A DNA stretch of 64,000 bases from a virus: the IMG/VR virus record IMGVR_UViG_3300020477_001447, positions 1 through 64,000 of that record; one strand, written 5' to 3'. The translations under genes and the position numbers were made by a program. The notes beneath the pieces were generated by a model that saw only the letters and a program-made list of their open reading frames with translations, was not told where the DNA came from and made no database searches. This document shows, piece after piece, positions 5,920 through 49,706 of this stretch. Every line of letters starts with the position of its first letter. The stretch's first letter is position 1.

Positions 5920-5933
5920 AAAGGATTTATAAG

Positions 5934-6074: not shown

Positions 6075-6084
6075 GAACAATATC

Positions 6085-6752: not shown

Positions 6753-6794
6753 AAATCACCAAACAAAGACTTAAAGAGATTATCAAGGAAGAGC
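6749..6794 (+). repeat. Direct DNA repeat, copy 3
   Basis: Identical to copy 1 except for the GTG start and one or two third-position changes (ACTTAAAG for ACTAAAAG). It lies 278 bases after copy 2. Confidence 0.85.
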
Positions 6795-6985: not shown

Positions 6986-7030
6986 TGAAAATCACCAAAC
7001 AAAGACTAAAAGAGATTATCAAGGAAGAGT
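6985..7030 (+). repeat. Direct DNA repeat, copy 4
   Basis: Matches copy 1 base for base through the AAGGAAGAG end of the core; 236 bases after copy 3. Confidence 0.85.
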
Positions 7031-7416: not shown

Positions 7417-7420
7417 TATT

Positions 7421-7906: not shown

Positions 7907-7908
7907 AA

Positions 7909-27397: not shown

Positions 27398-27472
27398 GCT
27401 CCCTTAGTTTAATGGTTAGAATTCTGGGTTTTCATCCCGGCGGCAGCGGTTCGACTCCGCTAGGGAGTACCA
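27398..27472 (+). tRNA. tRNA-Glu (anticodon TTC)
   Basis: Acceptor GCTCCCT/AGGGAGT; anticodon stem CTGGG/CCCGG with loop TTTTCAT; T-arm with TTCGACT; A and encoded CCA. Starts the seven-gene tRNA cluster. Confidence 0.93.
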
Positions 27473-27478
27473 AAAAAG

Positions 27479-27554
27479 TGAGGTGTAGTTCAACTGGCAG
27501 AGCGCCAGACTTTGAATCTGGTTGTTGCAGGTTCGAGTCCTGCCACCTCAACCA
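27479..27554 (+). tRNA. tRNA-Gln (anticodon TTG)
   Basis: Acceptor TGAGGTG/CACCTCA; anticodon stem CCAGA/TCTGG with loop CTTTGAA; T-arm GCAGG-TTCGAGT-CCTGC; A and encoded CCA. Confidence 0.94.
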
Positions 27555-27561
27555 TTCATCA

Positions 27562-27637
<76 letters not shown>

Positions 27638-27646
27638 TATAATATT

Positions 27647-27892
27647 ATGAAACCACAAAACGATTTAGATATTTTAGATGAACTAGTAGTAGATACAATT
27701 CTATCAAATGTAAAACATGAGTTTGATGCCATAATTGGACAAATATATTTTCTTTATAGGAAACGAGATAATACATATTTTGTATCGATGGTTGAACCAG
27801 AATATTGGACAAAGTATAATTTTGATCTAATATCCCAGGTTAAATTCACTCATGAACAATCATGGATGAGCGTAGATGGAACGGGGATGTAG
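27647..27892 (+). CDS. Small protein between tRNA genes
   Basis: ATG 27647 is ten bases after tRNA-Thr; an upstream start would lie in the tRNA. The 81-residue product starts KPQNDLDILDELVVDTILSN and contains a YFLYRKRDNTYFVSMVEPEYW beta region. Its TAG stop is bases 8-10 of tRNA-Ala, so gene and tRNA overlap by ten bases. No family recognised. Confidence 0.5.
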   Translation: MKPQNDLDILDELVVDTILSNVKHEFDAIIGQIYFLYRKRDNTYFVSMVEPEYWTKYNFDLISQVKFTHEQSWMSVDGTGM

Positions 27893-27958
27893 CTCAGTTG
27901 GGAGAGCAGCTGCCTTGCACGCAGCAGGTCGCAGGTTCGACTCCTGTCGTCTCCACCA
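27883..27958 (+). tRNA. tRNA-Ala (anticodon TGC)
   Basis: Acceptor GGGGATG/CGTCTCC; anticodon stem GCTGC/GCAGC with loop CTTGCAC; T-arm GCAGG-TTCGACT-CCTGT; encoded CCA. The conserved T8-A9-G10 is the stop codon of the overlapping gene. Confidence 0.93.
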
Positions 27959-27979
27959 TTGTTTTCCTTTAAATAATCA

Positions 27980-27987
27980 TATAAATA
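27980..27987 (+). promoter_or_regulatory. TATAAATA before tRNA-Pro
   Basis: A second TATAAATA octamer in the 47-base gap upstream of tRNA-Pro. It may be a T4-type late promoter for the end of the tRNA cluster and the genes after it, or a chance AT-rich match. Confidence 0.35.
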
Positions 27988-28005
27988 GACTATAATTATA
28001 TTGGA

Positions 28006-28083
28006 CGGGGTATGGCGCAGTCTGGCTAGCGCACTCGCTTTGGGAGCGAGGGGTCGTAGGTTCGAATCCTACTACCCCGACCA
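28006..28083 (+). tRNA. tRNA-Pro (anticodon TGG)
   Basis: Acceptor CGGGGTA/TACCCCG; anticodon stem CTCGC/GCGAG with loop TTTGGGA; encoded CCA. Confidence 0.94.
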
Positions 28084-28104
28084 TTTAATGAGAGACACCA
28101 TTTT

Positions 28105-28193
28105 GGAAGCGTGTCCGAGAGGCCGAAGGAGCACGATTGGAAATCGTGTGTGGTTCATAGCTACCGTAGGTTCGAATCCTACCGCTTCCGCCA
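28105..28193 (+). tRNA. tRNA-Ser (anticodon GGA)
   Basis: Acceptor GGAAGCG/CGCTTCC; anticodon stem CACGA/TCGTG with loop TTGGAAA; a long variable arm typical of class II tRNA; T-arm GTAGG-TTCGAAT-CCTAC; discriminator G and encoded CCA. Confidence 0.94.
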
Positions 28194-28206
28194 TATATGG
28201 GATTTT

Positions 28207-28464
28207 ATGGAGAATATTGAGTTAGTTATAGCAGCTTGTTCTTTTTTAATGTGCGTCATGATTATGATCGGCACATGGATTCGTTTTACACGTTATCATT
28301 TTACTATAGAAAATCTATGGTCTAGAATAGTTAGACTAGAAATGATTATGTCATATAATAATTTACACCCCCCAGAATGGGACATAGATTATTTAGAAGA
28401 ACAGAGGCAAAGGTATTATCAATCCGACAATGTTGTCTATATAAACTATGATGAAGAACAATAA
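28207..28464 (+). CDS. Small membrane-anchored protein between tRNA genes
   Basis: ATG 28207 follows tRNA-Ser by 13 bases. The 85-residue product has an N-terminal hydrophobic helix (IELVIAACSFLMCVMIMIG), then a charged, Tyr-rich cytoplasmic tail. Its stop ends exactly one base before tRNA-Asn. Unknown function. Confidence 0.5.
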   Translation: MENIELVIAACSFLMCVMIMIGTWIRFTRYHFTIENLWSRIVRLEMIMSYNNLHPPEWDIDYLEEQRQRYYQSDNVVYINYDEEQ

Positions 28465-28539
<75 letters not shown>

Positions 28540-28602: not shown

Positions 28603-29841
28603 ATGAGCGTCTTTAGAGAACACAAGTCTAACGTAGATAGAAGTGCTACAGATCGAAAACGACATAAAGAAAAAATTGAAAAAGCCATAAAGGAAAGCAT
28701 CAAAGATGTTGTAGCCGAAGAAAGCATTATTGGTCAAAACGGGAAAAAGAAGATAAAAATACCGGTAAAGGGAATAAAAGAGTACCGGTTTGTTTATGGT
28801 AAAAATGATAAAAATAAAACAGTTGGATCCGCTGGTGACATTAATGTAAAAAAGGGGCAAAAGGTTGGTCGCTCTACAGCCAACAGAATTTCAAAAGGAA
28901 ACAAACCATCAGATAAAGCTGGTGAAGAAAAGTACGAAGTAGAAATAAGTCTAGAAGAATTAGCTAGTTATCTGTTCGATAGCCTCCAGTTGCCGGAACT
29001 AGAAAAGAAAAGATTTAAATTTATAAATCAAGAGAAGTTAAGAAGAAAAGGACACAGGCTACAAGGCATAAGGTCCAGACTTTCAAAGAAAGAAACTCTT
29101 AAAAGAAAAATCAAACGAAAAAAGCAGGCAATTGCTGCAGGTACTCACGATCCGGACAGTGGTGAACGTTTTCCATTTCATAAAAATGACTTGAAATATC
29201 ACCACGTTAAGCCTAAAAACAAAGAAAATACAGCGGCTGTTATATTTTTTATAATGGATGTGTCTGGTTCTATGGATCAGGACAAAAAGTTTCTAGCAAG
29301 AAGCTTTTGTTTCCTGTTATATCAGTTTATTAGACATAAGTATGAAAATGTTGAAGTTGTATTTATTGCACACACAACAAAAGCGAAACAAGTAAATGAA
29401 AATGAGTTTTTCACACGGATAACTTCCGGAGGAACAATTATGTCCTCAGCATTAGAGCTAGAAAAGGAACTAATTGAAAAACAATATCATCCAAGTTCTT
29501 GGAATATATACACTTTTTATGCTGGTGATGGTGAAAACTGGCCAAGTGATATTAGAAAATCTACAAATATATTAAATGAAATGAAACAGTTTAATCAACT
29601 AATTGCATACACTGAAATCACACCGTGGGATACCAATGGTTGGCAAGATCCAAACTGGCCAGATTCAATTACAAAAACACCATATCACGCTAGAAGGACA
29701 AATCACAATCCTATGGGTATATCAATGTGGGAAGAGCTAAAGTTAATAGAAGATTCAACGTTGAAACGAGTGAAGATAGTAAACACAGAATCAATCTGGC
29801 CAGCATTTTCTAGATTGTTTGGAGGAAAAACTGATGGATGA
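28603..29841 (+). CDS. yeaH: YeaH/YhbH-family protein (DUF444) with vWA domain
   Basis: 412 residues, close to the bacterial family (about 380-430). The N-terminus SVFREHKSNVDRSATDRKRH is the family opening. A basic middle follows (KLRRKGHRLQGIRSRLSKKE), and the C-terminal half is a von Willebrand A domain with MIDAS DVSGSMDQ (about 219-226) and the SGGTIMSSALEL and TFYAGDGENW stretches. In bacteria YeaH works with the kinase YeaG/PrkA and SpoVR under starvation. The phage keeps all three genes in a row. GAGGAG is upstream. The gene overlaps the SpoVR gene by eight bases. Confidence 0.88.
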   Translation: MSVFREHKSNVDRSATDRKRHKEKIEKAIKESIKDVVAEESIIGQNGKKKIKIPVKGIKEYRFVYGKNDKNKTVGSAGDINVKKGQKVGRSTANRISKGNKPSDKAGEEKYEVEISLEELASYLFDSLQLPELEKKRFKFINQEKLRRKGHRLQGIRSRLSKKETLKRKIKRKKQAIAAGTHDPDSGERFPFHKNDLKYHHVKPKNKENTAAVIFFIMDVSGSMDQDKKFLARSFCFLLYQFIRHKYENVEVVFIAHTTKAKQVNENEFFTRITSGGTIMSSALELEKELIEKQYHPSSWNIYTFYAGDGENWPSDIRKSTNILNEMKQFNQLIAYTEITPWDTNGWQDPNWPDSITKTPYHARRTNHNPMGISMWEELKLIEDSTLKRVKIVNTESIWPAFSRLFGGKTDG

Positions 29842-31150
29842 GTGGAACATCAAGGATCTAGAAGAGTGGGATAAAAAAATATGTGAATTAGGAGAGTCTT
29901 ATGGGCTGGACTGGTTTGATATTGATTATGAGATAATTGACTATCATGAAATGATTGGCGCTATGTCCTATGTTGGTATGCCAACCCATTATCGCCATTG
30001 GTCTTTTGGAAAATTATTTGAGATAACGCATGCAAAATATACAATGGGGCAAACTGGCCTACCATACGAGATGATTATTAATTCAAATCCAAGCATCGCC
30101 TATCTAATGAAAGAAAACCCAATGAGCACACACTTGTTAACAATGTCTCACTGTGTCGGTCACAGTGATTTCTTTAAAAACAATAGGATGTTCAAGCACA
30201 CTGATCCAGACAATGTAATATCTAAATTTAAATTAGGTTCAAAGAGAATACAACAATATCTTGAAGATCCATCAATAGGCGTCAACAAGGTAGAGAGAAT
30301 AATTGATGCCTGCCATGCGATAAAATACCAGATTCCACGCACACCGGGAATCAAAAGAAGAAGCCAAGAGGAACTTAAGGGCATCTATGTGCAAAAAATG
30401 TTAGATTCTACGGATGGTATCTTTGATGATATAGATTTAGATAAGTTTCCCTTAGAAAGAGATTATAATTTATTAGCCTTCATTCGCGAAAACTCTAGAA
30501 ATCTTAAAGATTGGGAGCGCGACGTTATTTCTATTGTTGAAGAAAATTCTAAATATTTCTTACCACAAGCGTATACTAAGATAATGAATGAGGGTTGGGC
30601 AGTCATGATGCATGAAAAGATTATGAAAGATTTGAATTTGCCCCATGCCTACCATTTGGCTTTTATAAAATTACATAATCAAGTTGTCAGGCCACACCTT
30701 GGTGGTGTTAACCCATATCACTTAGGATATACAATCTTTAAGAAGATCGAAGAAGAAAAAGGATTTGATGAATGCTTAATGGTGCGCGAGGTTCATAATG
30801 ACGTAACATTTTTAAGAAAATATTTAGATGAGCAATTGGCTAGAGACTTGAATTTATTTGCCTTTTCTTACAAAAAGAAGCAAAATGTACACACTATAGA
30901 TGATGTTTCTAACGAAGATGGGTGGGAGAACGTCCGCGATGCTCTAATTAGTACAGTAGGGTTAAACTCAGTACCGGTTGTGTATGTGGAGGAACTAATG
31001 AAAGATAACAGCTTGCACATCGTTCATGACCACGATGGTAGAGATTTAAATTTACAACATGGCCATAAAGTTTATGATCACATAAAAGAGTTATGGGGCG
31101 ACAACGTGATATTTACAACAATAATTGAAGAGGAACTGTGGGAATTCTAA
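29834..31150 (+). CDS. spoVR: SpoVR (YcgB)-family protein
   Basis: ATG 29834 with GGAGG at 29821-29825 is preferred over a TTG at 29819. 438 residues, a little shorter than YcgB (about 510). Family stretches: GLDWFDIDYEIIDYHEM near the N-terminus, GMPTHYRHWSFGK, MSHCVGHSDFFKNN, NEGWAVMMHEKIM (Glu-Gly-Trp block) and LGGVNPYHLGYTIF. SpoVR was named for spore cortex formation in Bacillus, but its homologues in non-sporing bacteria act in stress responses; the biochemical role is unknown. Overlap with the YeaH gene and one-base spacing to PrkA show one operon. Confidence 0.88.
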   Translation: MDEWNIKDLEEWDKKICELGESYGLDWFDIDYEIIDYHEMIGAMSYVGMPTHYRHWSFGKLFEITHAKYTMGQTGLPYEMIINSNPSIAYLMKENPMSTHLLTMSHCVGHSDFFKNNRMFKHTDPDNVISKFKLGSKRIQQYLEDPSIGVNKVERIIDACHAIKYQIPRTPGIKRRSQEELKGIYVQKMLDSTDGIFDDIDLDKFPLERDYNLLAFIRENSRNLKDWERDVISIVEENSKYFLPQAYTKIMNEGWAVMMHEKIMKDLNLPHAYHLAFIKLHNQVVRPHLGGVNPYHLGYTIFKKIEEEKGFDECLMVREVHNDVTFLRKYLDEQLARDLNLFAFSYKKKQNVHTIDDVSNEDGWENVRDALISTVGLNSVPVVYVEELMKDNSLHIVHDHDGRDLNLQHGHKVYDHIKELWGDNVIFTTIIEEELWEF

Positions 31151-31151
31151 A

Positions 31152-33086
31152 ATGAAAAAAACAACAAAATTTCTTAAAGAAATAGATAAACATAAGAGTC
31201 TCAAAAAGGCTGATAAATTTCAAGGTACTTTAGAAGATTATATTAACCTTTTGGAAGAAGATTCCTCTATTTGCAATTTAGCACATAAGAGGTTGTACGA
31301 TGCGCTGTCCAGCTATGGTATTACAGCGATGAAAGAGTCTGACTCTAGATGCAATAAGCTTTTCGGAGGCGAACAGCTAAAAACATACGATTATTTTCAA
31401 GATAAGTTTTTTGGAATGGAACGATCTTTAGCAAAAATCATGCGGTTTTTGAGATCAGCATCGCTCAAAGGCGAAGAGAGTCGACAAGTTTTACTTCTTT
31501 TAGGCCCCGTTGGAGCCGGCAAGTCAGCACTAGTTGAGCATATTAAGCGCGCCTTAGAAGCCTCCGCGCCAATTTATCATATTGAAGGTTGTCCTATACA
31601 GGAGGAGCCTCTTCACTTGGTACCAAGAAGTTTAAGGGAAAAATTTCAAGAAATTTACGGCATAAAAATAGAGGGTGATCTGTGTCCGGTTTGCCGACAC
31701 AATCTCTTAAATGAATATGGTGGCGATTATATGAAAGTACCTGTTGTACAAACAACCTTCTCTATTAGAGGCCGTCGAGGCGTTGGTGTTGTTCCACCAA
31801 TGGATGCTAACACACAAGACACTTCCATACTTATTGGTACAGAAGACATATCTAAACTGGATCTATATCCAGAGGATGATCCTCGCGTATTAAGTCTTAA
31901 TGGTGCTTTTAACGTTGGCAACCGCGGTATTGTAGAGTTTGTTGAGGTCTTCAAAAACGAAATTGAATTCTTACATACAATGATTACAGCAACACAGGAA
32001 AAAGCAATTCCATCTCCAGGCAAGCAAGCCATGATTTATTTTGATGGCGTGATTCTTTCACACTGCAATGAGGCTGAGTGGAATAAGTTTAAATCTGAAC
32101 ACACTAATGAAGCTATTTTAGATAGAATTGTACGAGTTAACGTACCGTATTGTTTAGAATATTCAGAAGAACAGAAAATCTATAAAAAACTTCTAGATGA
32201 GTCTGATTTTGAGTGCCACTTTGCCCCTCACACTTTAGAGTTTGCCTCTATGTTCGCGGTATTATCTCGCCTTAAGCCAACAAATAAGATCGATCTTCTT
32301 ACAAAGATGAAGATGTATAATGGTGAAGAGATAATTGAAAAAGGTTCCGTTCGTAAAATTGATATCGAAGACCTCCGTGAAGAGGTGATAGACGAAGGTA
32401 TGACAGGGATTTCCACTCGGTTTATTATGAAAGCAATCGACAACGCTCTTTCCGATTCAGAAAGGAACATGATTACTCCTATTTCCATTCGAGATTCTTT
32501 AGTTAAGCAAGTTAAAGAACAGATTGTAGATCAGGAAGCCAGAGAAAACTATTTGATTTTCTTACAGAAAGTTCTACACGAGGAATACTTAAGAATTCTA
32601 GAAAGAGAAATTACAAAAGCTTTTGTTTCTGCATATGATGAACAGGCAGAGTCTTTATTTAATAATTACTTAGATCATGCCGAGGCTTATGTGAATGCAA
32701 CAAAGGTCAAGGATCGGGTTACAAAAGAAGAGATTAATCCGGATGAAAACTTCATGGTGTCAATTGAACAACAGATTGGCATCCAGGGTAGTGCTAAGGA
32801 TAACTTTAGAAGTGATATCACAGCATATATGTTTGCAATGTTACGCCGCGGCGAAACTATTGACTGGAGGAGTTATGGCCCGCTTAGAGAGGCAATCGAA
32901 AACAAGCTAGTTGCTTCAGTCAAAGATATATCCCGCATTATTACAAAGAGTAAAAGCAGAGATAATAAGCAAAAAGGCAAATACAATGATATGGTTAGAA
33001 CACTAATAGATGACTACGGCTATAGTGAGGATTCAGCCGCAGAAATTATTAAGTTTGCCGCTAACAATCTCTGGAGAGATTCATAA
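31152..33086 (+). CDS. prkA: PrkA/YeaG-family serine protein kinase
   Basis: 644 residues, the same length as E. coli YeaG (644). N-terminal AAA-like core: GPVGAGKSAL (Walker A, residues 118-127), LIGTEDISKL, ALNGAFNVGNRG-like and TATQEKAIPSPGKQ. Then come the long helical and C-terminal kinase-like portion typical of the family. In E. coli the kinase is needed in long nitrogen starvation; in Bacillus it phosphorylates proteins in sporulation. Catalytic details are debated. All parts are present, so an active kinase is likely. The start codon follows the SpoVR stop by one base; an in-frame start 27 bases earlier is less likely. Confidence 0.9.
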   Translation: MKKTTKFLKEIDKHKSLKKADKFQGTLEDYINLLEEDSSICNLAHKRLYDALSSYGITAMKESDSRCNKLFGGEQLKTYDYFQDKFFGMERSLAKIMRFLRSASLKGEESRQVLLLLGPVGAGKSALVEHIKRALEASAPIYHIEGCPIQEEPLHLVPRSLREKFQEIYGIKIEGDLCPVCRHNLLNEYGGDYMKVPVVQTTFSIRGRRGVGVVPPMDANTQDTSILIGTEDISKLDLYPEDDPRVLSLNGAFNVGNRGIVEFVEVFKNEIEFLHTMITATQEKAIPSPGKQAMIYFDGVILSHCNEAEWNKFKSEHTNEAILDRIVRVNVPYCLEYSEEQKIYKKLLDESDFECHFAPHTLEFASMFAVLSRLKPTNKIDLLTKMKMYNGEEIIEKGSVRKIDIEDLREEVIDEGMTGISTRFIMKAIDNALSDSERNMITPISIRDSLVKQVKEQIVDQEARENYLIFLQKVLHEEYLRILEREITKAFVSAYDEQAESLFNNYLDHAEAYVNATKVKDRVTKEEINPDENFMVSIEQQIGIQGSAKDNFRSDITAYMFAMLRRGETIDWRSYGPLREAIENKLVASVKDISRIITKSKSRDNKQKGKYNDMVRTLIDDYGYSEDSAAEIIKFAANNLWRDS

Positions 33087-33099: not shown

Positions 33100-34437
33100 A
33101 TGACAAAAAAGATATATGTGTTAGATACTAGTGTCTATTTAACAAATGCTGAGTCGATTTTTTCTTTTGATGACAATGATATAATCATTCCTTTAAAAGT
33201 CTTAGAAGAAGTAGACAAGCACAAAAAGCGCCAAGATGGTGCTGGGTTAAATGCTAGAACTATAATTAGAATTTTAGATATTCTTAGAGAAAGTGGAAGC
33301 CTTTATGAAGGCGTGTCTCTCGGTAGAGAATATGGTACTGTCCGTGCTCGTGGGATAGAAACACTACACACAGAGGAATTCCCAGTAGATCTAAATTTAC
33401 AAATTCCAGATCATATGATTATTGCAACGGCTTTGTCGGAAAAAATTGATAATCCCGAAAAGCAGGTAATCATGGTTACTAGGGATATCAACATGAGGGT
33501 TATATGCGACTCTTTGGGCCTATTGTGTGAAGATTTTGTTGATAACAAGATTGTTAAAAGTGGCGACAGTATTTTTACTGGTCACTTAACACACACGATT
33601 GCAGATTGTGAAATAGAAGCATTATATGCAAATGATGATATATATTTGGATCCCTCCGAAATTGACTTGCAACCAAATCAATTTGTAATGTTGACATCAG
33701 ATTTAAATCCGAAGAAAACTGTTTTGACAAGATTTTCTAACTATGTTACCCCACTAAAGAGAGTTGTGGCGTTTAAGAATGGTGTGTGGGGAGTCCGAGC
33801 TAGAAATAAAGAGCAAGCATATGCATTAGATCTGCTAATGAATCCAGATATATCATTAGTGACTTTGATAGGTAAAGCCGGCTCCGGTAAAACTCTTTGT
33901 GCTATAGCTGCCGGCATTCAGCAGATATTAGATATTCCATCCGATGGGAAAGAACCAAGGTATACCAGAATGATAGTCTCAAGACCAGTTCAACCGCTGG
34001 GGAAGGATATTGGCTTTTTACCTGGCACTATGGAAGAAAAGATGCATCCGTGGCTGATGCCAATTCAAGATAATTTACAATTCTTAATGGGTAATGATAA
34101 AGCTACGTTAGAAATGTACATGGAAAACGGTACAATAGAGATAGAGGCTTTGACATATATTCGTGGACGCTCCATCGCGAACGCTTTTATTATAATTGAT
34201 GAAGCTCAAAACTTAACAACTCACGAATTAAAGACTATCATTACAAGAGTTGGTGAAGGAACTAAGATTGTGTTGACGGGAGATGTTGAGCAGATTGACA
34301 ATACTTATATTGATGCCACAACTAACGGGCTAACACACGCTGTTGAAAAATTCAAAGAAACTGACCTAGCTGGTCACATTACTTTGTCCAAGGGCGAAAG
34401 ATCAAAAGTTGCGACACTAGCAGCAAAAATTTTATAG
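33100..34437 (+). CDS. phoH: PhoH-family protein with N-terminal PIN domain
   Basis: 445 residues. Residues 1-130 are a PIN ribonuclease domain (KKIYVLDTSVYLT, IIPLKVLEEVDKHKK, MIIATALS, VTRDINMRV) with the acidic residues in place. Residues 240-445 are the PhoH ATPase: GKAGSGKT (258-265), PVQPLGKDIGFLPG, IIDEAQN and LTGDVEQID. This PIN-PhoH (PhoH2-type) architecture is known to have RNase/helicase activity in bacteria. phoH itself is very common in marine phages. Here it follows the kinase operon and may belong to the same stress-linked block. Confidence 0.93.
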   Translation: MTKKIYVLDTSVYLTNAESIFSFDDNDIIIPLKVLEEVDKHKKRQDGAGLNARTIIRILDILRESGSLYEGVSLGREYGTVRARGIETLHTEEFPVDLNLQIPDHMIIATALSEKIDNPEKQVIMVTRDINMRVICDSLGLLCEDFVDNKIVKSGDSIFTGHLTHTIADCEIEALYANDDIYLDPSEIDLQPNQFVMLTSDLNPKKTVLTRFSNYVTPLKRVVAFKNGVWGVRARNKEQAYALDLLMNPDISLVTLIGKAGSGKTLCAIAAGIQQILDIPSDGKEPRYTRMIVSRPVQPLGKDIGFLPGTMEEKMHPWLMPIQDNLQFLMGNDKATLEMYMENGTIEIEALTYIRGRSIANAFIIIDEAQNLTTHELKTIITRVGEGTKIVLTGDVEQIDNTYIDATTNGLTHAVEKFKETDLAGHITLSKGERSKVATLAAKIL

Positions 34438-36636: not shown

Positions 36637-37908
36637 ATGGACAAAAAAATTAAGATTTTTACTTTGAGCGATCACCCTTTATCTCCATCGGGTGTCGGTA
36701 CTCAGACTCGATATATGATCGAGGAAATGCTTAAAACTGGTAAATATCAGTTTGTAAGTTTTGGTGGAGCAATCAAACATCACGATTATAGACCTACGAG
36801 GACTGAAGAGTTTGGCGATGATTGGATTATATATCCAGTTGATGGTTATGGAGATCAAGATTCTATTAGATCGGTAATCTGGACAGAGAAGCCAGACGTT
36901 TTATGGTTTATGACAGACCCTAGGTTTTGGGGCTGGCTTTGGCAGATTGAAAATGAGATTAGAGCAAACGTGCCGATGGTCTATTACCACGTTTGGGATA
37001 ATAGGCCCTATCCTAATTTTAATAAAAGTTTCTACGACTCTAATGACAACATAGCGTGCATATCAAAGCTTACATATGAGGTTGTGCAAAATGTTTCACC
37101 GGATGTAGAATCGTCATACTTACCACACACTGTGAACACCGAAATCTTTAAAAAGCTCGATCCGGAGGTCATTGAACAATTCAGAGAAACTAGTATACCA
37201 CTTGAATACGAGCCAAACCGGGACAGAGTTTTGTTTTTTTGGAACAATCGAAATGCTAGAAGGAAACAGTCTGGCACTGTAGTCTGGTGGTTTAAAGAAT
37301 TTCTAGACATTGTTGGTCACAATAATGCTGCGCTTATAATGCACACAGAAACTGACGATGTACATGGTCAAGACTTGGAAGCTATTTCCCGCGAGCTTGG
37401 GTTAAACAATGGTCAGTTGGTTTTCTCCAGACAAAAGGTGCCAGCAGAAAACTTAGCCTTGGCTTACAACATGTGTGATTGTACTATTAATATTGCCGAT
37501 GCGGAAGGTTTTGGTTTAGCGACTTTAGAGTCTTTAGCCTGCGAAGTGCCAATTATTGTGACAATGACTGGTGGCCTACAGGAGCAAGTTACTGACGGAG
37601 AGAACTGGTTTGGTTTTGGTCTTGAGCCTGCAGCAAAAGCTATAATTGGCTCCCAGGAGGTGCCATACATCTATGAAGATCGTGTATCAAAAGAGGACTT
37701 TTTAGATGCAATGGTTAAGTTTTATAATATGACTAAAGAAGAAAGAGCGAAAATGGGTGCTGCTGGTAGAAATCACGTACTAACAAATTATTCTTTTGAA
37801 AAATATAGAACCAATTGGGACAACCTTTTTACCAAAGTGCATGAGGAATGTGGCTCCTGGGCTACGCGAAAGAATTACCAGTCTTGGGAGATGAAGGAAA
37901 TAAAATGA
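36637..37908 (+). CDS. GT4-type glycosyltransferase
   Basis: 423 residues with a GT-B fold: N-terminal acceptor domain (LSDHPLSPSGVGTQTRYM with Gly-rich loop), then RVLFFWNNRNARRKQSG and EGFGLATLESLACEVPIIV, the E-x(7)-E nucleotide-sugar signature (Glu-Gly-Phe...Glu-Ser). This is family GT4. It opens the glycan block. ATGA-type overlap with the next gene. Confidence 0.85.
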   Translation: MDKKIKIFTLSDHPLSPSGVGTQTRYMIEEMLKTGKYQFVSFGGAIKHHDYRPTRTEEFGDDWIIYPVDGYGDQDSIRSVIWTEKPDVLWFMTDPRFWGWLWQIENEIRANVPMVYYHVWDNRPYPNFNKSFYDSNDNIACISKLTYEVVQNVSPDVESSYLPHTVNTEIFKKLDPEVIEQFRETSIPLEYEPNRDRVLFFWNNRNARRKQSGTVVWWFKEFLDIVGHNNAALIMHTETDDVHGQDLEAISRELGLNNGQLVFSRQKVPAENLALAYNMCDCTINIADAEGFGLATLESLACEVPIIVTMTGGLQEQVTDGENWFGFGLEPAAKAIIGSQEVPYIYEDRVSKEDFLDAMVKFYNMTKEERAKMGAAGRNHVLTNYSFEKYRTNWDNLFTKVHEECGSWATRKNYQSWEMKEIK

Positions 37909-39989
37909 GAAAAAAGATATTAGTTAAAGGCCCAGCCTTATCTCGTTCTGGGTATGGAGAGCAAACACGGTTTGCACTACGCTCCCTTCGCAGTCAAGAA
38001 GAAAAATATGATATTTATCTACAAAATATTCCGTGGGGTCAAACTGGGTGGATTTTTGATGATAACGAAGAGCGCACTTGGATTGATGCTTGTTTGGCTA
38101 AAAGTGTAGAATATGTTGCAGCAGGCGGCAAGTTCGACATGTCATTACAGGTTACAATACCAAATGAGTGGGAAAAATTAGCACCAGTGAACATAGGATA
38201 TACTGCCGGGATAGAAACAAATCAAATTTCACCAGCATGGATTGAAAAGACTGAAGTAGTTGATAAGATCATAACAATTTCAGAACACTCTAAGGATGGA
38301 TTCCTAAACACAGTATATGATGTACAAAATAAAGAAACTGGCCAAGTAGTAAAGGGTTACAGGTGTGAAACACCAGTAGAGGTGGTACACTATCCAGTAC
38401 GAAACGTTAAGCCGGCGAAACTAGATCTAGAACTAGAAAATGATTTTAACTTTTTAGTTTTAGCTCAGTGGGGTGTTAGAAAAAACCTAGAAAATACAAT
38501 ACGTTGGTTTGTTGAAGAGTTTATTGATAGAGATGTTGGCTTGGTTATTAAGACTAATGCCGCAAATGACTCTATTATGGACAGAGACCACTGCGAAAAA
38601 AGATTACAAGAGCTTTTGAGTGAGTATGAAAATAGGCAGTGCAAGGTTTATATGATCCACGGCACAATGAAAGAAGATGAGCTGGCTGGTCTTTACAATC
38701 ATCCTAAAATAAAAGCACTAATATCACTGACGCACGGTGAAGGCTACGGCTTGCCAATTTTTGAAGCCGCGTATTATGGTCTTCCAGTTATAACCGCTGG
38801 TTGGTCCGGACACGTTGATTTCTTATCAGCTCCGGTTAAAGAGAAGAACAAAAAAGTTAAAGTTAAGCCACTTTATGCAAAGGTAGACTTTGATGTAAAA
38901 CGTATTCAAAAAGAAGCTCGCTGGGAAGGTGTTATTGAGAAAAGGTCTGAATGGTGTTACCCGCGAGAAGGCAGCGCAAAGATGCGCATGCGCGAGGTTT
39001 ATAAAAGTCATGGAAGATTTAAGAGCAATGCACGAAAACTACAATCGTGGATCTTAGAAAATTTCACAGAAGAACAGAAGTATGAGCAATTTGCTAATGC
39101 TGTTTGTGACGAGAAGATTGATTTAGACTGTGATTATGTTTTTGTTAGTGACAGATTTGCTGATCAGGCCCCTGGCGGCGCAGAGTTAAGTTTTCAGGCT
39201 GTTATAGATACAGCCCCCGGAAAACATCTAAAACTAAACGCCTCAGATGTTAGTGAAAGCTTAATAGATACATTAAAAGATAAAACTTGGATTTTCTCTA
39301 ATTTTACAGCGATGGATAAATCCCTCGTTCCAAAGATCGCAGAAAACCTGAAGTATTACTTTATAGAATCAGATTATAAATACTGTGAACATAGATTACC
39401 ACAGCTGTGTCAGATCTTCAATGGTGGAGAGGACTGCGTTTGTGTCGAAAAGGACTCAGGTCAGTTGATTAAATTGTTCTGTGATAACGCACAGTTGTTG
39501 TTTTTCCGTTCCGAGAACCAACGCGCACATCACTTAAGTGCTCTGGATCTAAAAAAGAAGGACACTAGGATCATGTCTGCGGTCTTTACGGACGATGTAT
39601 TAAATTATATTCAAGCATTGCGCAAGGAATTTCTTAATAAGAAAGTAGATGTGTGGGTTGTCAGTTCTTCGCCTTCGTGGGTTAAGGGACATCAGGCTTC
39701 GAAGAAGTGGTGTGAAGAAAACAACAAACAAGTATTTGAGCTACATGGTAAGTCTTATAAGGAATCCCTTGCTTGTTTAGCACAGGCCCGCGGCCTCTGC
39801 GCACTCCCGCCAGGGTATGATACTTGTCCACGAATGGTTATTGAAGCGAAGTTGTTGGGTTGTGAACTGCAGTTAAACGAGAACGTTTTGCATGCTGATG
39901 AAAAGTGGTTCGCTACAGATGACATTGAAGCAATAGAAGCACACTTAAGATCAGTGGTGCCAACATTCTGGAAGGAAGTTTCAGTTTAA
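37905..39989 (+). CDS. Two-domain glycosyltransferase (fused GT-B units)
   Basis: ATG 37905 (ATGA with the previous stop) is used instead of an upstream frame. 694 residues: residues about 1-400 are a GT4-like unit (GPALSRSGYGEQTRFAL, LVLAQWGVRKNLENTI, HGEGYGLPIFEAAYYGLPVI with the E-x(7)-E). Residues about 410-694 are a second GT-B-like unit (VFVSDRFADQAPGGAELSFQ, then VVSSSPSWVKG, LPPGYDTCPRMVIEAKLLGC). Such fusions can make two linkages in one chain. Function is predicted glycan synthesis, specificity unknown. Confidence 0.75.
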   Translation: MRKKILVKGPALSRSGYGEQTRFALRSLRSQEEKYDIYLQNIPWGQTGWIFDDNEERTWIDACLAKSVEYVAAGGKFDMSLQVTIPNEWEKLAPVNIGYTAGIETNQISPAWIEKTEVVDKIITISEHSKDGFLNTVYDVQNKETGQVVKGYRCETPVEVVHYPVRNVKPAKLDLELENDFNFLVLAQWGVRKNLENTIRWFVEEFIDRDVGLVIKTNAANDSIMDRDHCEKRLQELLSEYENRQCKVYMIHGTMKEDELAGLYNHPKIKALISLTHGEGYGLPIFEAAYYGLPVITAGWSGHVDFLSAPVKEKNKKVKVKPLYAKVDFDVKRIQKEARWEGVIEKRSEWCYPREGSAKMRMREVYKSHGRFKSNARKLQSWILENFTEEQKYEQFANAVCDEKIDLDCDYVFVSDRFADQAPGGAELSFQAVIDTAPGKHLKLNASDVSESLIDTLKDKTWIFSNFTAMDKSLVPKIAENLKYYFIESDYKYCEHRLPQLCQIFNGGEDCVCVEKDSGQLIKLFCDNAQLLFFRSENQRAHHLSALDLKKKDTRIMSAVFTDDVLNYIQALRKEFLNKKVDVWVVSSSPSWVKGHQASKKWCEENNKQVFELHGKSYKESLACLAQARGLCALPPGYDTCPRMVIEAKLLGCELQLNENVLHADEKWFATDDIEAIEAHLRSVVPTFWKEVSV

Positions 39990-39990
39990 T

Positions 39991-40743
39991 ATGACAGATC
40001 CTCATTTTAAAATTGTTACATCGATGTACAATGTTGAAAGCTGGATCAAAAGAACAGCGTTGAGCGTCAAGAATCAAAATTATACAAACTTTCAATGTGT
40101 GTTTGTTGATGACGCCTCCACTGACAAAACTGTTGAGATCTTAGAGGAGCTTGTTGGGGACGATGACAGATTCGCAATTCTTAAGAATTCGGATAAGAAA
40201 TATTCCCTAGGAAGAATATACGAGGGTATAGAACACGCTAAGCCACAAGATGAAGATATTATTCTCAGTGTAGACGGGGATGACTGGTTAGCAACAAAGA
40301 ACGTTTTAACTTACCTTAAGGACTTCTACGAGAAGGAACAATGCTGGATGACCTACGGAAGCTACATGGAGTTTCCAACTGGTATGAAGGGAATTGAAGC
40401 TTCTGCCTACTCTCCTGCGGTTATTCAAAGTAACACATATCGTACTGATCGTTGGCGAGCATCCCATTTAAGAACATTTAAATACAAGCTTTGGAAGAAT
40501 ATCAAGAAAGAAGATCTCTTAGATTGGAATGGGGATTTCTTTAAAACAACTATTGACAAAGCATTTATGTACCCTATGTTAGAGATGTCGGGTGACCGCG
40601 CCAAGTATATCGATGAGATACTTTATGTGTATAACTTGACCAATCCGCTTAATGTCCACAAAGCGCGCAGAGATCTGCAATTAAAAACAAATGATTATTT
40701 GAGAGGTAAAAAGGCATATGACCGCAAAGACGTACTGCATTAA
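39991..40743 (+). CDS. GT2-type glycosyltransferase
   Basis: 250 residues. GT-A fold start: FKIVTSMYNVESWIKRTALS, then FVDDASTDKTVEIL and SVDGDDWLA (the DxD metal site), as in GT2 enzymes such as SpsA. It ends in a variable helical tail. It overlaps the following methyltransferase by 26 bases. Confidence 0.85.
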   Translation: MTDPHFKIVTSMYNVESWIKRTALSVKNQNYTNFQCVFVDDASTDKTVEILEELVGDDDRFAILKNSDKKYSLGRIYEGIEHAKPQDEDIILSVDGDDWLATKNVLTYLKDFYEKEQCWMTYGSYMEFPTGMKGIEASAYSPAVIQSNTYRTDRWRASHLRTFKYKLWKNIKKEDLLDWNGDFFKTTIDKAFMYPMLEMSGDRAKYIDEILYVYNLTNPLNVHKARRDLQLKTNDYLRGKKAYDRKDVLH

Positions 40744-41338
40744 AGAAGGATATGTTACGAGAGACGAATATATCCAGAATATACAAATAGGATCTGGAGA
40801 CAAGTTTCAAGATCGAGTATACGCAAAGGCTCGCGAAGTTTGTGAGCGCAATAACTGCATGACTGTTTTAGATATTGGATGCGGATCTGGCTATAAACTG
40901 ATAAAATATTTTAGTGATAAAATTTTTTTAGGATTAGAACTAGAGCCAAACTTAAGTTGGCTCAAAGAAACTTACCCACACTATCACTTTCAACTCTCTG
41001 ACTTCGACAACCCTCCCGGTGGTCGTTTTGATTTGGTTATTTGCTCTGATGTTATTGAACACCTTTTAGATCCGGATCAATTATTAGAGTTTGTACAAAA
41101 ATTAAATTTTGGTACGTTTGTAGTTTCCACTCCGGAGAGGGATAACATGCAGTTATTACAAAAAGGATTTACCTGGGATGGACCTCCTCATAACCAGTAT
41201 CACGTTAGAGAGTGGACAGAGGATGAATTTGAACAGTACATTTCTGAAACATTTAACATACAAGAACAAGTATTAACAAAAGGCGAAGAGGTCAGCACAG
41301 TAAATGAATGTCAGATCGTTGTTGCAACTAGAAAATGA
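40718..41338 (+). CDS. SAM-dependent methyltransferase (class I)
   Basis: 206 residues. Motif I VLDIGCGSGYKL, acidic motif II GLELEP, and FDLVICSDVIEHLLDPD (post-II/motif III). A typical Rossmann methyltransferase for small molecules or sugars, often found in O-antigen clusters. Substrate unknown. The gene starts inside the end of the GT2 gene and the next starts inside its own stop, so translation is coupled. Confidence 0.8.
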   Translation: MTAKTYCIKEGYVTRDEYIQNIQIGSGDKFQDRVYAKAREVCERNNCMTVLDIGCGSGYKLIKYFSDKIFLGLELEPNLSWLKETYPHYHFQLSDFDNPPGGRFDLVICSDVIEHLLDPDQLLEFVQKLNFGTFVVSTPERDNMQLLQKGFTWDGPPHNQYHVREWTEDEFEQYISETFNIQEQVLTKGEEVSTVNECQIVVATRK

Positions 41339-42243
41339 AAATCTTTTTAGATAATGTAAATCTGAATTCAACTAGTGGGCCAAACCACTTTGGTACAAAA
41401 CTAAACAAGTATATTAGTCGTCTTGGTGCGACTTGCACAACTAATCTTGATGAATCAAGTTTGGATGTACAGCTGTCATTTATTGAATCAATTCAAAATT
41501 CTAATTTGCCATTAGTTCAAAGATTAGATGGTATCTATTTTGATATTGATACTGATAACAAACTCATGAATTCAAATTTACAGAAAACATACGAGAATTC
41601 TGCAGGTGTTATATTCCAGTCTGAATACTGCAGAGACTTATGTTTTAAATATTTAGGTGCGCATGATAACCATACTGTCATTCATAATGGCGCAGACTAT
41701 GAGTTGATTGATGAGATAGAACCTCTTCAAGATTCGCTCCTTGATAAGTTTGATACAGTTTGGACCTGTGCCAGCCGTTGGCGACCTTGGAAGCGATTAA
41801 GGCAAAATGTTGAATATTTTATTAATTTTTCTGGAGAGAACGATTGCTTAGTAGTTGCCGGTAACCCCCCCGACGATGAGGTGGTAAAGCACAACAGAGT
41901 GTTCTATGTGGGGCGCTTACCTGTTGACATACTGTTTTCTTTATATAAGAGGTCTAAGTATTTTATACACTTAGCAAGATATGACGCTTGTCCAAACGTT
42001 GTTGTTGACGCAAGAGCTAGTGGGTGTCAGATTATTTGTTCTTCGCTGGCTGGAACTAAAGAGGTCGCCGGCCCAAATGCTTTGGTAGTTGAAGATGTGC
42101 CGTGGGACTTAGAGCCCGTCAGCACATCACGAATACCAGATATTAAGTTTGATAATGTAACAAAGAACACATACAATACAAATATTGATATGACCTTTGT
42201 TGCAAAAAATTACTTAAACTTTTTACAAAAAACTTTACAATAG
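41335..42243 (+). CDS. Glycosyltransferase (GT4-like)
   Basis: 302 residues. Gly-rich acceptor loop (LNSTSGPNHFGTKLNKY), FQSEYCRDLCFKY and VIHNGADYELI typical of GT4 starts, then the donor domain with RWRPWKRLRQ and ARYDACPNVVVDARASGCQI in place of the usual E-x(7)-E. It may use an unusual donor. Part of the glycan operon with overlapping borders. Confidence 0.7.
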   Translation: MKIFLDNVNLNSTSGPNHFGTKLNKYISRLGATCTTNLDESSLDVQLSFIESIQNSNLPLVQRLDGIYFDIDTDNKLMNSNLQKTYENSAGVIFQSEYCRDLCFKYLGAHDNHTVIHNGADYELIDEIEPLQDSLLDKFDTVWTCASRWRPWKRLRQNVEYFINFSGENDCLVVAGNPPDDEVVKHNRVFYVGRLPVDILFSLYKRSKYFIHLARYDACPNVVVDARASGCQIICSSLAGTKEVAGPNALVVEDVPWDLEPVSTSRIPDIKFDNVTKNTYNTNIDMTFVAKNYLNFLQKTLQ

Positions 42244-42250
42244 GATTATT

Positions 42251-43099
42251 ATGTTACTACAAAAACAAGTTGATAAATTTATCATGAATTTGAATGTCGC
42301 TGATGGCGGCATTTCTAATGTTCTCTATCACGTTGGTGAGAGAGAATTGGCATTTATGTCTCTTTTGCGCGAAACCGTTGAAGAGGGAATGACATGCGTG
42401 GACCTAGGAAGCAATATTGGTTATACAACCCTTTTTATGCTAGACAAGGTGGGTGAAACGGGCAGGGTGTATGCTATTGAACCCGATCCAAACAACCTAG
42501 GGCTTCTGCAAAGCAACATACGCCAAAATAATTACACCTCTATATGCGAGGTTACGCAGTGTGCAATATCAGATACAGATGGTCAGTTAGATTTCTGGCA
42601 GGCTAGTGCTCCAAACTTGAGCAGTATTACTAAGCACAAGAACAGCACCCATAAGATTACAGTTGATTCATTCTGTCTTAACACTTTCTTATCTAGTCGT
42701 GAATATCCAAACTTTCTTAAGATGGATGTTGAAGGCGGGGAAGTTAAGATCTTTGAAGGAGGTTTAGACTATTTTACCAAAAATAGAGGTACAACTCATT
42801 TCTTGGTGGAGGTCCACCCAGCAACTTATAATGAAGAGAATGATTTTGAAGCAATCCTAAAAAAGTATTTCGAAATAGGATTTAGCCCAAAGTATGTTGT
42901 AACAACTCCAGTTCCGCAACCTACCTTGTTCGCAGAGGCCGGATACACACCTGCCCGTACTGTAGAAACAGATGGATTTCATCGTGGAGTATATGACGAT
43001 ATATCAAATGAGCACTTGTTAGAGTTTGCCTGCAGGGAGCACCAAGAGGGTCGCAGTAAGAAGATCGTTAGAAGTTTCATGCTTTCACGCGAGGAATAG
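42251..43099 (+). CDS. FkbM-family methyltransferase
   Basis: 282 residues. CVDLGSNIGYTTLFML (motif I of FkbM), VYAIEPDPNNL (motif II), ITVDSFCLNTFL, and FLKMDVEGGEVKIFEG, the family's DVEGxE hallmark. Members O-methylate sugars and other hydroxyls. In this block it would cap or decorate the glycan. Confidence 0.85.
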   Translation: MLLQKQVDKFIMNLNVADGGISNVLYHVGERELAFMSLLRETVEEGMTCVDLGSNIGYTTLFMLDKVGETGRVYAIEPDPNNLGLLQSNIRQNNYTSICEVTQCAISDTDGQLDFWQASAPNLSSITKHKNSTHKITVDSFCLNTFLSSREYPNFLKMDVEGGEVKIFEGGLDYFTKNRGTTHFLVEVHPATYNEENDFEAILKKYFEIGFSPKYVVTTPVPQPTLFAEAGYTPARTVETDGFHRGVYDDISNEHLLEFACREHQEGRSKKIVRSFMLSREE

Positions 43100-43105
43100 C
43101 TTTAA

Positions 43106-43798
43106 ATGTATTTTGAAAAAGGCTTGAATGATTTTGGTATTGTTCTGAAGGGGGCTAGTGTAGCGAGGTTACCAAAGATAGTTGATAACTATCAAGATTG
43201 CTACATGGTTAATAATTTTGATCGCAATGCGGACAACAATGACTCTGAGTGGACCTTAGTAGCCCCCTTGCTCTCTGGTAAGAACGTTGCTCATTTTGTC
43301 AATAGACTAGAGACAGCACCGCTTTTAAAAGAACATTATGAAGAATTAAATATTAAGCACATTCAATTTACAAAAACCCAACTAGATCAGCGCCTATCCG
43401 ACATGAAAGGTTTGTACGAAAGTTATAACCTAACCTGTCACACACTCCCAGAGGAACTGTTAGAATATAACAGTTTCTTTACGGACAAATACTATATGCG
43501 ACCCGGGGACTCCAACTACGCGGAGAAGCATCCAAATACTGGTGTACTATCAATTATTTACGCAGCTCATATTTTAAAACCTAAAAACTTATGGATAGCT
43601 GGTTTAGATTTTTATCAAAACGATTATCTTTTCCGACGACCGTGGATTGCACCATTGAAAAATCAGCAGTTAAAAATGAGAAATACTCAAATGGTAGAAC
43701 ATTTTGTAGAGGTAATAAAAAAGCATCCAGACATCAATTTTAAAATGATTACAAATGCGAATCTGCCTCCATTGCAAAATTTGGAGATTATAGAATGA
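43106..43798 (+). CDS. Sialyltransferase-like protein (GT42/CstI-like)
   Basis: 230 residues. IVLKGASVARLPKI and CYMVNNFD at the start, and NTGVLSIIYAAHILKPKNLWIAGLDFYQND near the end, follow the arrangement of Campylobacter Cst-type sialyltransferases (GNGPSL..., SGVYM...GYKEIYLSGIDFYQ). This makes transfer of a CMP-activated nonulosonic acid a fair prediction. The next gene is of a second sialyltransferase type. Identification is by motif reading and deserves a profile search. Confidence 0.6.
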   Translation: MYFEKGLNDFGIVLKGASVARLPKIVDNYQDCYMVNNFDRNADNNDSEWTLVAPLLSGKNVAHFVNRLETAPLLKEHYEELNIKHIQFTKTQLDQRLSDMKGLYESYNLTCHTLPEELLEYNSFFTDKYYMRPGDSNYAEKHPNTGVLSIIYAAHILKPKNLWIAGLDFYQNDYLFRRPWIAPLKNQQLKMRNTQMVEHFVEVIKKHPDINFKMITNANLPPLQNLEIIE

Positions 43799-44571
43799 CA
43801 ATTCAAAATTTTTTAGAAAAGATTAAGCCGAATAAAGAATACAATGATTATCTTAGTGGTAAGCGGGTGGCGATTGTCGGCCCATCAAAACATATGTTGG
43901 CTTATGATGCCGGCACCTTAATTGATGATTATGATGTGGTTATTCGAATGAAGTGGGTAGATATCCTACCTTTGGCAGAACACTGTGATGGAAAATATGT
44001 CAAGCATGTTGGCAGCAAGACAGACGTTGTTTATGGCAACAGGTTCTTAATTGTCAACAATATGATGCAGGAGTATTTGGAATACTTTAAAAAATCAGGC
44101 ATTGATCATTATAGGATCCCTGATAATAAAATTTCAAATCACTTCTTTTCGAAAGACTTAGCTTGCGGAACAACATATACAGAGTATTCTTGCGGAGAGT
44201 TTGGTGTACAATACCAGCAATCACTAGGAACTTCAGATACAAGATATTGGCCGCAAACAGGAACAGTAGCGATCATGGAAGCAATTGCTAGTGATGCCGC
44301 CGAGGTTTTTATTAGTGGCATAACAATGTATCATGGCGGGGGTCACATTTTTCAAAAGAATAAAAACCCAACTCACAATCAACCGATAGTTGGAAAACAT
44401 CACGGCGTGCTAGAATTATCAATGTTGATAGATTGTTTTGATCTGCCAGAAAATCAGGGGAGAATAAGGGTTGATGAATTTTTGTACAATATTATGAACT
44501 TTCATAAGCAAGGCACCCCAACAAAAGAGATTACAAAGATTATAAATAAGCGTGTAAATGATTTGGTATGA
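43795..44571 (+). CDS. Sialyltransferase-like protein (GT29-like)
   Basis: 258 residues. RVAIVGPSKHML (the G-x-S/GPS loop), DYDVVIRMKW and then PQTGTVAIMEAIASDAAEVFISGITMY match GT29-like bacterial and phage proteins with the sialyl-motif style L-x-x-x-x-D-V-V-I-R. It sits directly between the Cst-like gene and the CMP-sugar synthetase with ATGA overlaps. Use of a CMP-nonulosonate donor is predicted. Confidence 0.65.
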   Translation: MTIQNFLEKIKPNKEYNDYLSGKRVAIVGPSKHMLAYDAGTLIDDYDVVIRMKWVDILPLAEHCDGKYVKHVGSKTDVVYGNRFLIVNNMMQEYLEYFKKSGIDHYRIPDNKISNHFFSKDLACGTTYTEYSCGEFGVQYQQSLGTSDTRYWPQTGTVAIMEAIASDAAEVFISGITMYHGGGHIFQKNKNPTHNQPIVGKHHGVLELSMLIDCFDLPENQGRIRVDEFLYNIMNFHKQGTPTKEITKIINKRVNDLV

Positions 44572-45245
44572 TAGGCAACAAAAAAGTTTTAGCAGTCACC
44601 CTCGCCCGCGGTGGCTCGAAAAAGATTCCAAGAAAAAACATAATAGATATTAATGGAAAGCCTCTGTTGGGCTACACAACAGAAGTAGTACAAAAAAGCA
44701 AGTATGTTGATGCGCATATCGTGTCGACAGATGATACAGAAATATCTATTGTAGCACAATTGTGTGGAGCCTCAGTACATATGAGAGATCCATCTTTAGC
44801 CTTAGACACTACAACTTCTGCTGCAGCACTTTTAGATGTGGCAAAAAAACATCCAGATTACGACTATGTGGTTGAAGTAATGGCAACAAATCCATTAAAA
44901 ACCACAGAAGACCTTGACAACGTAATAAAAAAGCTTTATGATACTGGTGCAGACTCTGTTGTGTCGGTGGTTAGAATATGGGACCAGCACCCTTCTAGAG
45001 TTAAATATATTAAGGACGATAAGCTAATGGACTTTTATCCAGAAATACCAGAGTCCCGCCGGCAGGATTTGACACCAGCAGCGTATGTTCGCAATGGCAG
45101 TATCTATGCAACAACTATGAAATCATTTTTGGAGCACAAAGTTCGTTTAGGTCCGGACACGCGACCACATATTATGTCAGAAGAGAACACAATTAACATT
45201 GATGAGCCTAGGGATTTAGAATTAGCGAGAATTTTATTAAAATGA
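44568..45245 (+). CDS. neuA: CMP-nonulosonate (sialic acid) cytidylyltransferase, copy 1
   Basis: 225 residues. Begins KVLAVTLARGGSKKIPRKNI, the P-loop-like start of NeuA/KdsB-type cytidylyltransferases. It contains STDDTEISIVAQ, LALDTTTSA, VVEVMATNPLKTTEDLD and YVRNGSIYATT with the INIDEPRDLELA ending. These match NeuA/PseF/LegF. The product would be CMP-sialic, pseudaminic or legionaminic acid, which the two transferases upstream could use. Confidence 0.85.
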   Translation: MIGNKKVLAVTLARGGSKKIPRKNIIDINGKPLLGYTTEVVQKSKYVDAHIVSTDDTEISIVAQLCGASVHMRDPSLALDTTTSAAALLDVAKKHPDYDYVVEVMATNPLKTTEDLDNVIKKLYDTGADSVVSVVRIWDQHPSRVKYIKDDKLMDFYPEIPESRRQDLTPAAYVRNGSIYATTMKSFLEHKVRLGPDTRPHIMSEENTINIDEPRDLELARILLK

Positions 45246-48174: not shown

Positions 48175-48177
48175 AGA

Positions 48178-49705: not shown

Positions 49706-49706
49706 G

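What the first reader, a model, noticed from the sequence alone, without database searches (positions are those of the whole stretch)
28603..33086. Complete YeaH-SpoVR-PrkA stress-kinase module carried by a phage
Three overlapping or abutting genes encode full-length homologues of the vWA protein YeaH (MIDAS DVSGSMDQ), SpoVR/YcgB and the 644-residue kinase PrkA/YeaG (Walker A GPVGAGKSAL). In bacteria the three are linked to starvation and stationary-phase survival. All conserved motifs appear intact and translation is coupled, so the module is probably used. It may switch an infected, nutrient-starved cell into a state that favours the phage, perhaps by phosphorylating host proteins. I know of no described function for this trio in a virus.
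Basis: partly seen in the sequence, partly recalled or inferred. Interest (0 to 1): 0.87.

Follow-up and report, generated by a model that had tools for sequence, protein, structure and literature searches.

The report
Virus-specific PrkA–YeaH–SpoVR gene cassette
Large T4-like environmental phages carry their own long-established version of a three-gene bacterial stress operon, always complete and in a phage-specific order, and it looks more like an ATP-driven protein-remodelling machine than a kinase.

Summary
The trio is real and intact: YeaH/YhbH 28603-29841, SpoVR 29834-31150 and PrkA 31152-33086, on a phage contig with a T4-type baseplate. It is not unique. I found 114 distinct complete trios in viral contigs. 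All 139 loci with a complete trio keep the order YeaH-SpoVR-PrkA, and the five incomplete ones are cut by a contig end. Bacterial relatives usually have PrkA-YeaH-SpoVR. In trees all three proteins form a virus-only group; dN/dS is mostly 0.02-0.06. Thermus phages and 600-kb phages carry separate versions. 'Stress kinase' is the weak part: kinase motifs are absent, the C-terminus models as all-helical (low confidence), and a Bacillus homologue showed no kinase activity (PMC13001217). The parts fit an AAA+ motor with a vWA/MIDAS partner. In one lineage the trio lies between capsid and tail-sheath genes; in Thermus phage Lalka8 between portal/minor head and terminase; in 57 of 99 loci a GroEL-like gene accompanies it. 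Best guess: a phage protein-remodelling machine, probably for phage proteins; host-physiology control is the main rival. It is an accessory cassette, patchy among relatives. Phage PrkA and SpoVR genes were known; this virus-only clade seems undescribed.

The parts
28603..29841 (+). YeaH/YhbH (DUF444, vWA/MIDAS protein), 412 aa
   Evidence: Pfam PF04285 E 6e-104; MIDAS DxSxS, G276-T278 and D309 invariant in 139 viral sequences
29834..31150 (+). SpoVR/YcgB-like protein, 438 aa from the ATG at 29834
   Evidence: Pfam PF04293 E 6e-115; H106, H110, E253, H260 invariant in 141 viral sequences; confident model (pLDDT 86) with no known fold in the PDB
31152..33086 (+). PrkA/YeaG-like AAA+ protein, 644 aa
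   Evidence: Pfam PF08298 E 4e-142 and PF06798 E 5e-81; Walker A, N306, R325 invariant in 143 viral sequences; PDB relative 9xip
33100..34437 (+). PIN-PhoH protein immediately downstream; found 3-7 kb downstream in many other trio contigs; not shown to be part of the module
   Evidence: PF02562 and PF13638; family 4 in 56 of 99 loci
27398..28539 (+). Cluster of seven tRNA genes directly upstream (context only)
   Evidence: ARAGORN, Rfam

Best explanation
The three genes are a virus-specific lineage of the bacterial PrkA-YeaH-SpoVR cassette. Their products most likely form one ATP-driven protein-remodelling machine: PrkA as a ring-forming AAA+ motor, YeaH as the vWA/MIDAS partner that engages the target or couples it to the motor, and SpoVR as a third, possibly metal-binding, substrate or effector subunit. 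During infection I think it acts mainly as an assembly or refolding factor for phage proteins (head-neck-tail morphogenesis), comparable in logic to AAA+/vWA chaperone pairs. Shown here: gene content, order, conservation, selection, co-inheritance, AAA+ and MIDAS residues, linkage to structural and GroEL-like genes in some lineages. Inferred: complex formation, remodelling activity. Inferred weakly: that phage rather than host proteins are the target.
For: All 139 loci with a complete trio have it in one order and the five incomplete ones are cut by contig ends (114 distinct sequences). Gaps are small (median -4 and 12 bases). dN/dS is mostly 0.02-0.06, highest 0.13 in a nearly saturated pair. 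The distances of the three proteins co-vary (Spearman 0.57-0.77, permutation maximum 0.09) and PrkA co-varies with the baseplate gp6-like protein (0.77, 0 of 1000 permutations). AAA+ and MIDAS residues are invariant. Foldseek top hits of the PrkA model are Clp, Lon, ORC and RuvBL AAA+ proteins, no kinase, though not significant. Protein-kinase motifs are absent. Context: Gp23 capsid - adaptor - 2 genes - trio - 2 genes - sheath - tube - baseplate hub in L041; in eight of nine such loci YeaH overlaps or directly abuts the preceding gene. Thermus phage Lalka8: portal - minor head - trio - TerL. A GroEL-like gene is linked in 57 of 99 loci, nearly always downstream on the same strand (profile E 1e-36 against chaperonins). 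AAA+/vWA precedents: NorQD (PMC13036017) and MoxR-vWA pairs proposed for virion assembly in jumbo phages (PMC7824862). B. anthracis PrkA oligomerises with ATP but showed no kinase or protease activity (PMC13001217).
Against: Adjacency to head or tail genes holds for one marine lineage and the Lalka phages only. In the window the trio lies between a tRNA cluster and PhoH; in another group it lies alone among opposite-strand genes; in several long contigs the capsid gene is tens of kb away. Many phages with a related baseplate lack PrkA in the contig held (1 of 26 has it, and none of three contigs of 128-203 kb), so it is not required for that virion type. PrkA is not demonstrably MoxR-class (hhalign with RavA weak; Lon somewhat better). 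T4-type late promoters were not found before the trio, but neither before these phages' capsid genes, so timing is unknown.
Confidence: 0.45

Rival explanations
1. Host-physiology control: the phage supplies its own copy of the bacterial starvation/stress trio to keep a nutrient-poor host in a state that supports phage replication, by remodelling or phosphorylating host proteins.
For: The bacterial operon is induced by starvation and other stresses and yeaG/yeaH mutants alter recovery from nitrogen starvation (PMC4664914); YeaG has reported in vitro kinase activity and needs K426 (PMC4664914), which is K in 143/143 phage proteins; viral spoVR was common in an oxygen-minimum-zone virome (PMC8940887); the patchy, accessory distribution and self-contained insertion in some genomes suit an auxiliary gene set; a phage PhoH gene is nearby in many loci.
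Against: No kinase motifs; B. anthracis PrkA inactive as kinase (PMC13001217); Thermus phages have D at the K426 position; linkage to head/tail and chaperonin-like genes in some lineages; no host target known.
Confidence: 0.35
2. Sporulation or persistence genes: the phage manipulates host sporulation, as proposed for spoVR in marine viromes.
For: Names and Bacillus phenotypes; interpretation in PMC8940887.
Against: The family is widespread in non-spore-forming bacteria such as E. coli, and the nearest cellular relatives are mostly Myxococcota, Binatota and Pseudomonadota MAGs; no other sporulation genes seen in the loci examined.
Confidence: 0.05
3. Recent host-derived hitchhikers or assembly artefacts (host DNA on the viral contig).
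For: Enterobacter phage LAU1 carries host-like yeaG-yeaH at its very end.
Against: Virus-only clades for all three proteins, more than 100 distinct trios, same flanks in independent metagenomes, capsid and baseplate genes on the same contigs, purifying selection.
Confidence: 0.02

Closest known systems
Bacterial PrkA-YhbH/YeaH-SpoVR/YcgB cassette (E. coli yeaG-yeaH + ycgB)
   Same: Same three protein families, same domains, key residues conserved; nearest cellular PrkA 55-60% identical
   Different: Phage order is YeaH-SpoVR-PrkA instead of PrkA-YeaH-SpoVR; separate virus-only clades; shorter SpoVR; 11 fixed PrkA differences such as C305 (phage) for S (bacteria)
Thermus phage trio (phiYS40, TMA, YS40_Isch, phiLo, MN1, Lalka)
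   Same: Same three genes in the same order in a phage
   Different: Only about 32% PrkA identity to the window and a separate branch; phiYS40 has an extra ORF between SpoVR and PrkA; lacks the K427 lysine
Huge-phage copies (LR745206, LR756502, LR756504, LR756511) and Ralstonia phage RsoM2USA
   Same: PrkA plus SpoVR and/or YeaH in large phages (PMC8504454)
   Different: Bacterial gene order where readable; most group with the E. coli type in the tree, so separate acquisitions; RsoM2USA known from the paper only
AAA+/vWA chaperone pairs (NorQ-NorD, RavA-ViaA, MoxR-vWA of jumbo phages)
   Same: An AAA+ ATPase encoded with a vWA/MIDAS partner; in jumbo phages proposed for virion assembly (PMC7824862)
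   Different: PrkA is not shown to be MoxR-class; SpoVR has no counterpart there

Membership tests
PrkA/YeaG family | PrkA AAA domain plus PrkA C-terminal domain in one ~640-aa protein | tested here: met
   PF08298 and PF06798 together cover nearly the whole protein; full-length PDB match 9xip E 5e-121
PrkA/YeaG family | Walker A and AAA+ sensor/arginine residues | tested here: met
   GPVG[AS]GKS, N306, R325 invariant, 143 of 143
Serine/threonine protein kinase | Kinase fold and motifs (Gly loop, HRD, DFG) | tested here: not met
   No HRD in the C-terminal part of any of 47 phage sequences, no Gly loop in the window; C-terminal domain modelled all-helical, but model pLDDT only 65
Serine/threonine protein kinase | Phosphotransfer activity | not testable with these tools
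   Contested for cellular homologues: reported for YeaG (cited in PMC4664914), not detected for B. anthracis PrkA (PMC13001217)
YeaH/YhbH (DUF444) | DUF444 with vWA MIDAS DxSxS...T...D | tested here: met
   PF04285 E 6e-104; residues invariant in 139 of 139
SpoVR family | SpoVR domain; C-terminal SpoVR_C domain | tested here: inconclusive
   Main domain met, E 6e-115; SpoVR_C 25.7 bits, just under the 27.6 cut-off
MoxR-class AAA+/vWA chaperone pair | MoxR-class AAA+ protein encoded next to a vWA protein | tested here: inconclusive
   AAA+ plus vWA gene pairing met; MoxR relationship of PrkA not shown (hhalign probability 16% with RavA, 87% with Lon)
Core gene of the T4-like phage group | Present in most members | tested here: not met
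   PrkA found in 1 of 26 contigs chosen by the window's baseplate protein, and in none of the three longest (128-203 kb); fragments, so a rough test

The most novel reading that the evidence does not exclude
The phage PrkA-YeaH-SpoVR trio is a dedicated virion-morphogenesis chaperone machine, a new class of AAA+/vWA-driven assembly factor in T4-like phages, working with a phage GroEL-like protein in some lineages, and it reveals that the cellular 'stress kinase' trio is itself a protein-remodelling machine.
Probability: 0.25. Interest if true: 0.85.

Novelty: new variant of a known kind. Interest (0 to 1): 0.6.

Why it matters
PrkA, YeaH and SpoVR are widespread in bacteria, yet their biochemical role is unsettled: kinase, protease and AAA+ activities have each been claimed or denied. 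A large, old, streamlined phage version that is always complete, and close to head/tail or chaperonin-like genes in some lineages, gives an independent handle on what the trio does and makes 'remodelling machine or stress kinase' directly testable in a phage. It also gives a new reading of viral spoVR, now counted in viromes as a sporulation gene.

Tried and rejected
T4-type late promoter search (TATAAATA) to time expression: no signal before the trio, but none before the capsid or sheath genes of these phages either, so uninformative. Sigma-70 promoter scan no better than shuffles. SpoVR fold search: no significant match. PrkA model too weak (pLDDT 65) for a firm fold statement. A Walker B problem (FDG instead of IDE at 297-299) was considered; E. 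coli has NG there too, and the stretch reads like the sensor-1 strand, with GIVEFVE (259-265) the likelier Walker B (my inference). PADLOC: the three trio proteins match no defence family. Host of the phage: not determined. Virion proteomics of Thermus phages: the Lalka paper (PMC11437467) has no passage on SpoVR, vWA or AAA proteins; the TMA paper is not held. One record, L226, groups with bacteria and has PrkA before YeaH, so it was not counted as part of the virus clade.

Full report
OBSERVATION. YeaH/YhbH is 28603-29841 (412 aa), SpoVR 29834-31150 (438 aa from its ATG) and PrkA 31152-33086 (644 aa). Pfam gives DUF444 E 6e-104, SpoVR E 6e-115, AAA_PrkA E 4e-142 and PrkA C-terminal E 5e-81. 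YeaH and SpoVR overlap by 8 bases, and SpoVR and PrkA are 1 base apart. A PIN-PhoH gene follows at 33100 and seven tRNA genes precede. The record is a linear virus contig of 100,743 bp. It carries T4-type baseplate wedge proteins at 61299-63505 and a weak match to the late sigma factor family at 51329-52030.

NOT A SINGLE CASE. In annotated phage records full-length PrkA occurs in 16, mostly Thermus phages, plus four ~600-kb uncultured phages and one Enterobacter record whose yeaG-yeaH sits at the record's end and looks like host flank. In IMG/VR, 142 stretches encode relatives of PrkA (the best 80 were kept, 63-100% identical), and further scans added more. Of 144 viral-clade loci with PrkA, 139 hold all three genes, always YeaH-SpoVR-PrkA on one strand; the five others are cut by a contig end. 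Because scans overlap I also counted distinct DNA: 114 complete trios. Of 32 contigs searched, mostly long ones, 18 carry the T4-type capsid protein Gp23, and 14 of 16 carry a relative of the window's own gp6-like baseplate protein, the window's record included.

VIRUS-SPECIFIC LINEAGE. Nearest cellular relatives, 55-60% identical, come from Myxococcota, Binatota, Pseudomonadota and others. Where the three can be read they are mostly in the order PrkA-YeaH-SpoVR (50 of 80 loci; most of the rest show fewer than three genes). Two 'bacterial' hits with the phage order (L108, L109) fall inside the phage clade; L109 lies on a contig of the same length, 101,404 bp, as the viral record of L225 and gives the same scores, so it is evidently a phage contig binned into a MAG. 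In the PrkA tree the viral rows, with L108 and L109, form one group (SH-aLRT 100, branch 0.78); one odd record, L226, groups with bacteria. SpoVR and YeaH give the same split (98 and 97). Trees are quick searches with long outgroup branches, so deep placement of Thermus and huge phages is unsure, but they are outside the clade and most huge-phage copies join the E. coli type. The trio was therefore probably acquired by phages several times.

USED. dN/dS is mostly 0.02-0.06 in pairs with unsaturated dS, highest 0.13. Walker A, N306 and R325 of PrkA, the MIDAS residues of YeaH and H106/H110/E253/H260 of SpoVR are invariant in 139-143 viral sequences. The proteins' distances co-vary (0.57-0.77), and PrkA distances follow the baseplate protein (0.77; 0 of 1000 permutations; 14 genomes). 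The cassette is thus inherited largely with the phage backbone. It is still not universal: of 26 contigs chosen by the baseplate protein only one had PrkA, and none of the three contigs of 128-203 kb did. Contigs are fragments, but one in 26 is fewer than I would expect for a core gene.

KINASE OR MACHINE. Kinase motifs are missing. The PrkA model is weak (pLDDT 65) but its C-terminal part is almost all helix, and its best PDB matches are Clp, Lon, ORC and RuvBL proteins, none significant. A solved relative exists, 9xip. B. anthracis PrkA showed neither kinase nor protease activity but formed oligomers with ATP (PMC13001217). Against this, E. coli YeaG K426A fails to complement (PMC4664914) and that lysine is kept in all phage proteins. 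It lies four residues after an invariant arginine in a GxSxR motif that I read as the AAA+ lid (sensor 2); that reading is from memory and untested. An AAA+ protein encoded with a vWA/MIDAS protein is the plan of NorQ-NorD (PMC13036017) and of MoxR-vWA pairs proposed for virion assembly in jumbo phages (PMC7824862), but a MoxR relation of PrkA is not shown.

CONTEXT. In one lineage (nine loci: L006, L008, L010, L013, L015, L033, L035, L041, L043) the trio follows Gp23 and three genes; in L041 two genes, then sheath, tube and baseplate hub follow. In eight of these nine YeaH overlaps or directly abuts the gene before it, in five of them by a 4-base overlap. In Thermus phage Lalka8 the order is portal, minor head, YeaH, SpoVR, PrkA, two short ORFs, TerL. 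In the largest marine group a GroEL-like protein (apical and intermediate domains; profile E 1e-36) is encoded downstream on the same strand, often as the next gene; the family is found in 57 of 99 loci. The window's own record has no match to it. Elsewhere the trio lies beside tRNAs and PhoH (this window), metabolic genes, or alone among opposite-strand genes. The first three settings favour a role with phage proteins; the last ones show a cassette that can stand alone.

VERDICT. A real, old, virus-specific variant of a known bacterial trio. The 'stress kinase' label is doubtful; an AAA+/vWA remodelling machine is more likely (about 0.75 on my judgement), with phage proteins as somewhat more likely targets than host proteins. 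Earlier reports of single genes exist (PMC8504454, PMC8940887, Thermus records). In the literature I could search I found no description of this clade or of the conserved trio in it.

Noticed in passing
window 2306-8376: Nine successive or near-successive ORFs share one of two related N-terminal peptides (for example MKITKQRLKEIIKEEL at 6471, 6749, 6985; xENWxxFLxE at 3440, 4063) on otherwise different proteins; resembles a capsid-targeting or propeptide signal.
   Followed up: no
window 14486-14803: Phage tmRNA gene with tag ANNADYDLALAA, besides nine tRNA genes in the window.
   Followed up: no
window 36637-50570: Block of glycosyltransferase, NeuB-like and NeuA-like genes suggesting a phage nonulosonic-acid (sialic-acid type) pathway; read from sequence only.
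   Followed up: no
L068:12292-13602 and 56 relatives: GroEL-like proteins matching chaperonin apical and intermediate domains (profile E 1e-36) encoded near the trio, nearly always downstream on the same strand; the equatorial ATPase domain does not align.
   Followed up: partly
L238 (MN688132, 1-3308): Enterobacter phage LAU1 record begins with yeaG-yeaH, probably flanking host DNA rather than phage genes.
   Followed up: partly
L099:3255-5816: SpoVR reading frame of 853 aa, a possible fusion with a further domain.
   Followed up: no
record of L073 (293,409 bp), 176509-180120: Two adjacent Gp23 capsid-protein genes.
   Followed up: no
L232:4136-5986: phiYS40 and YS40_Isch have an extra ~616-aa hypothetical protein between SpoVR and PrkA.
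   Followed up: no
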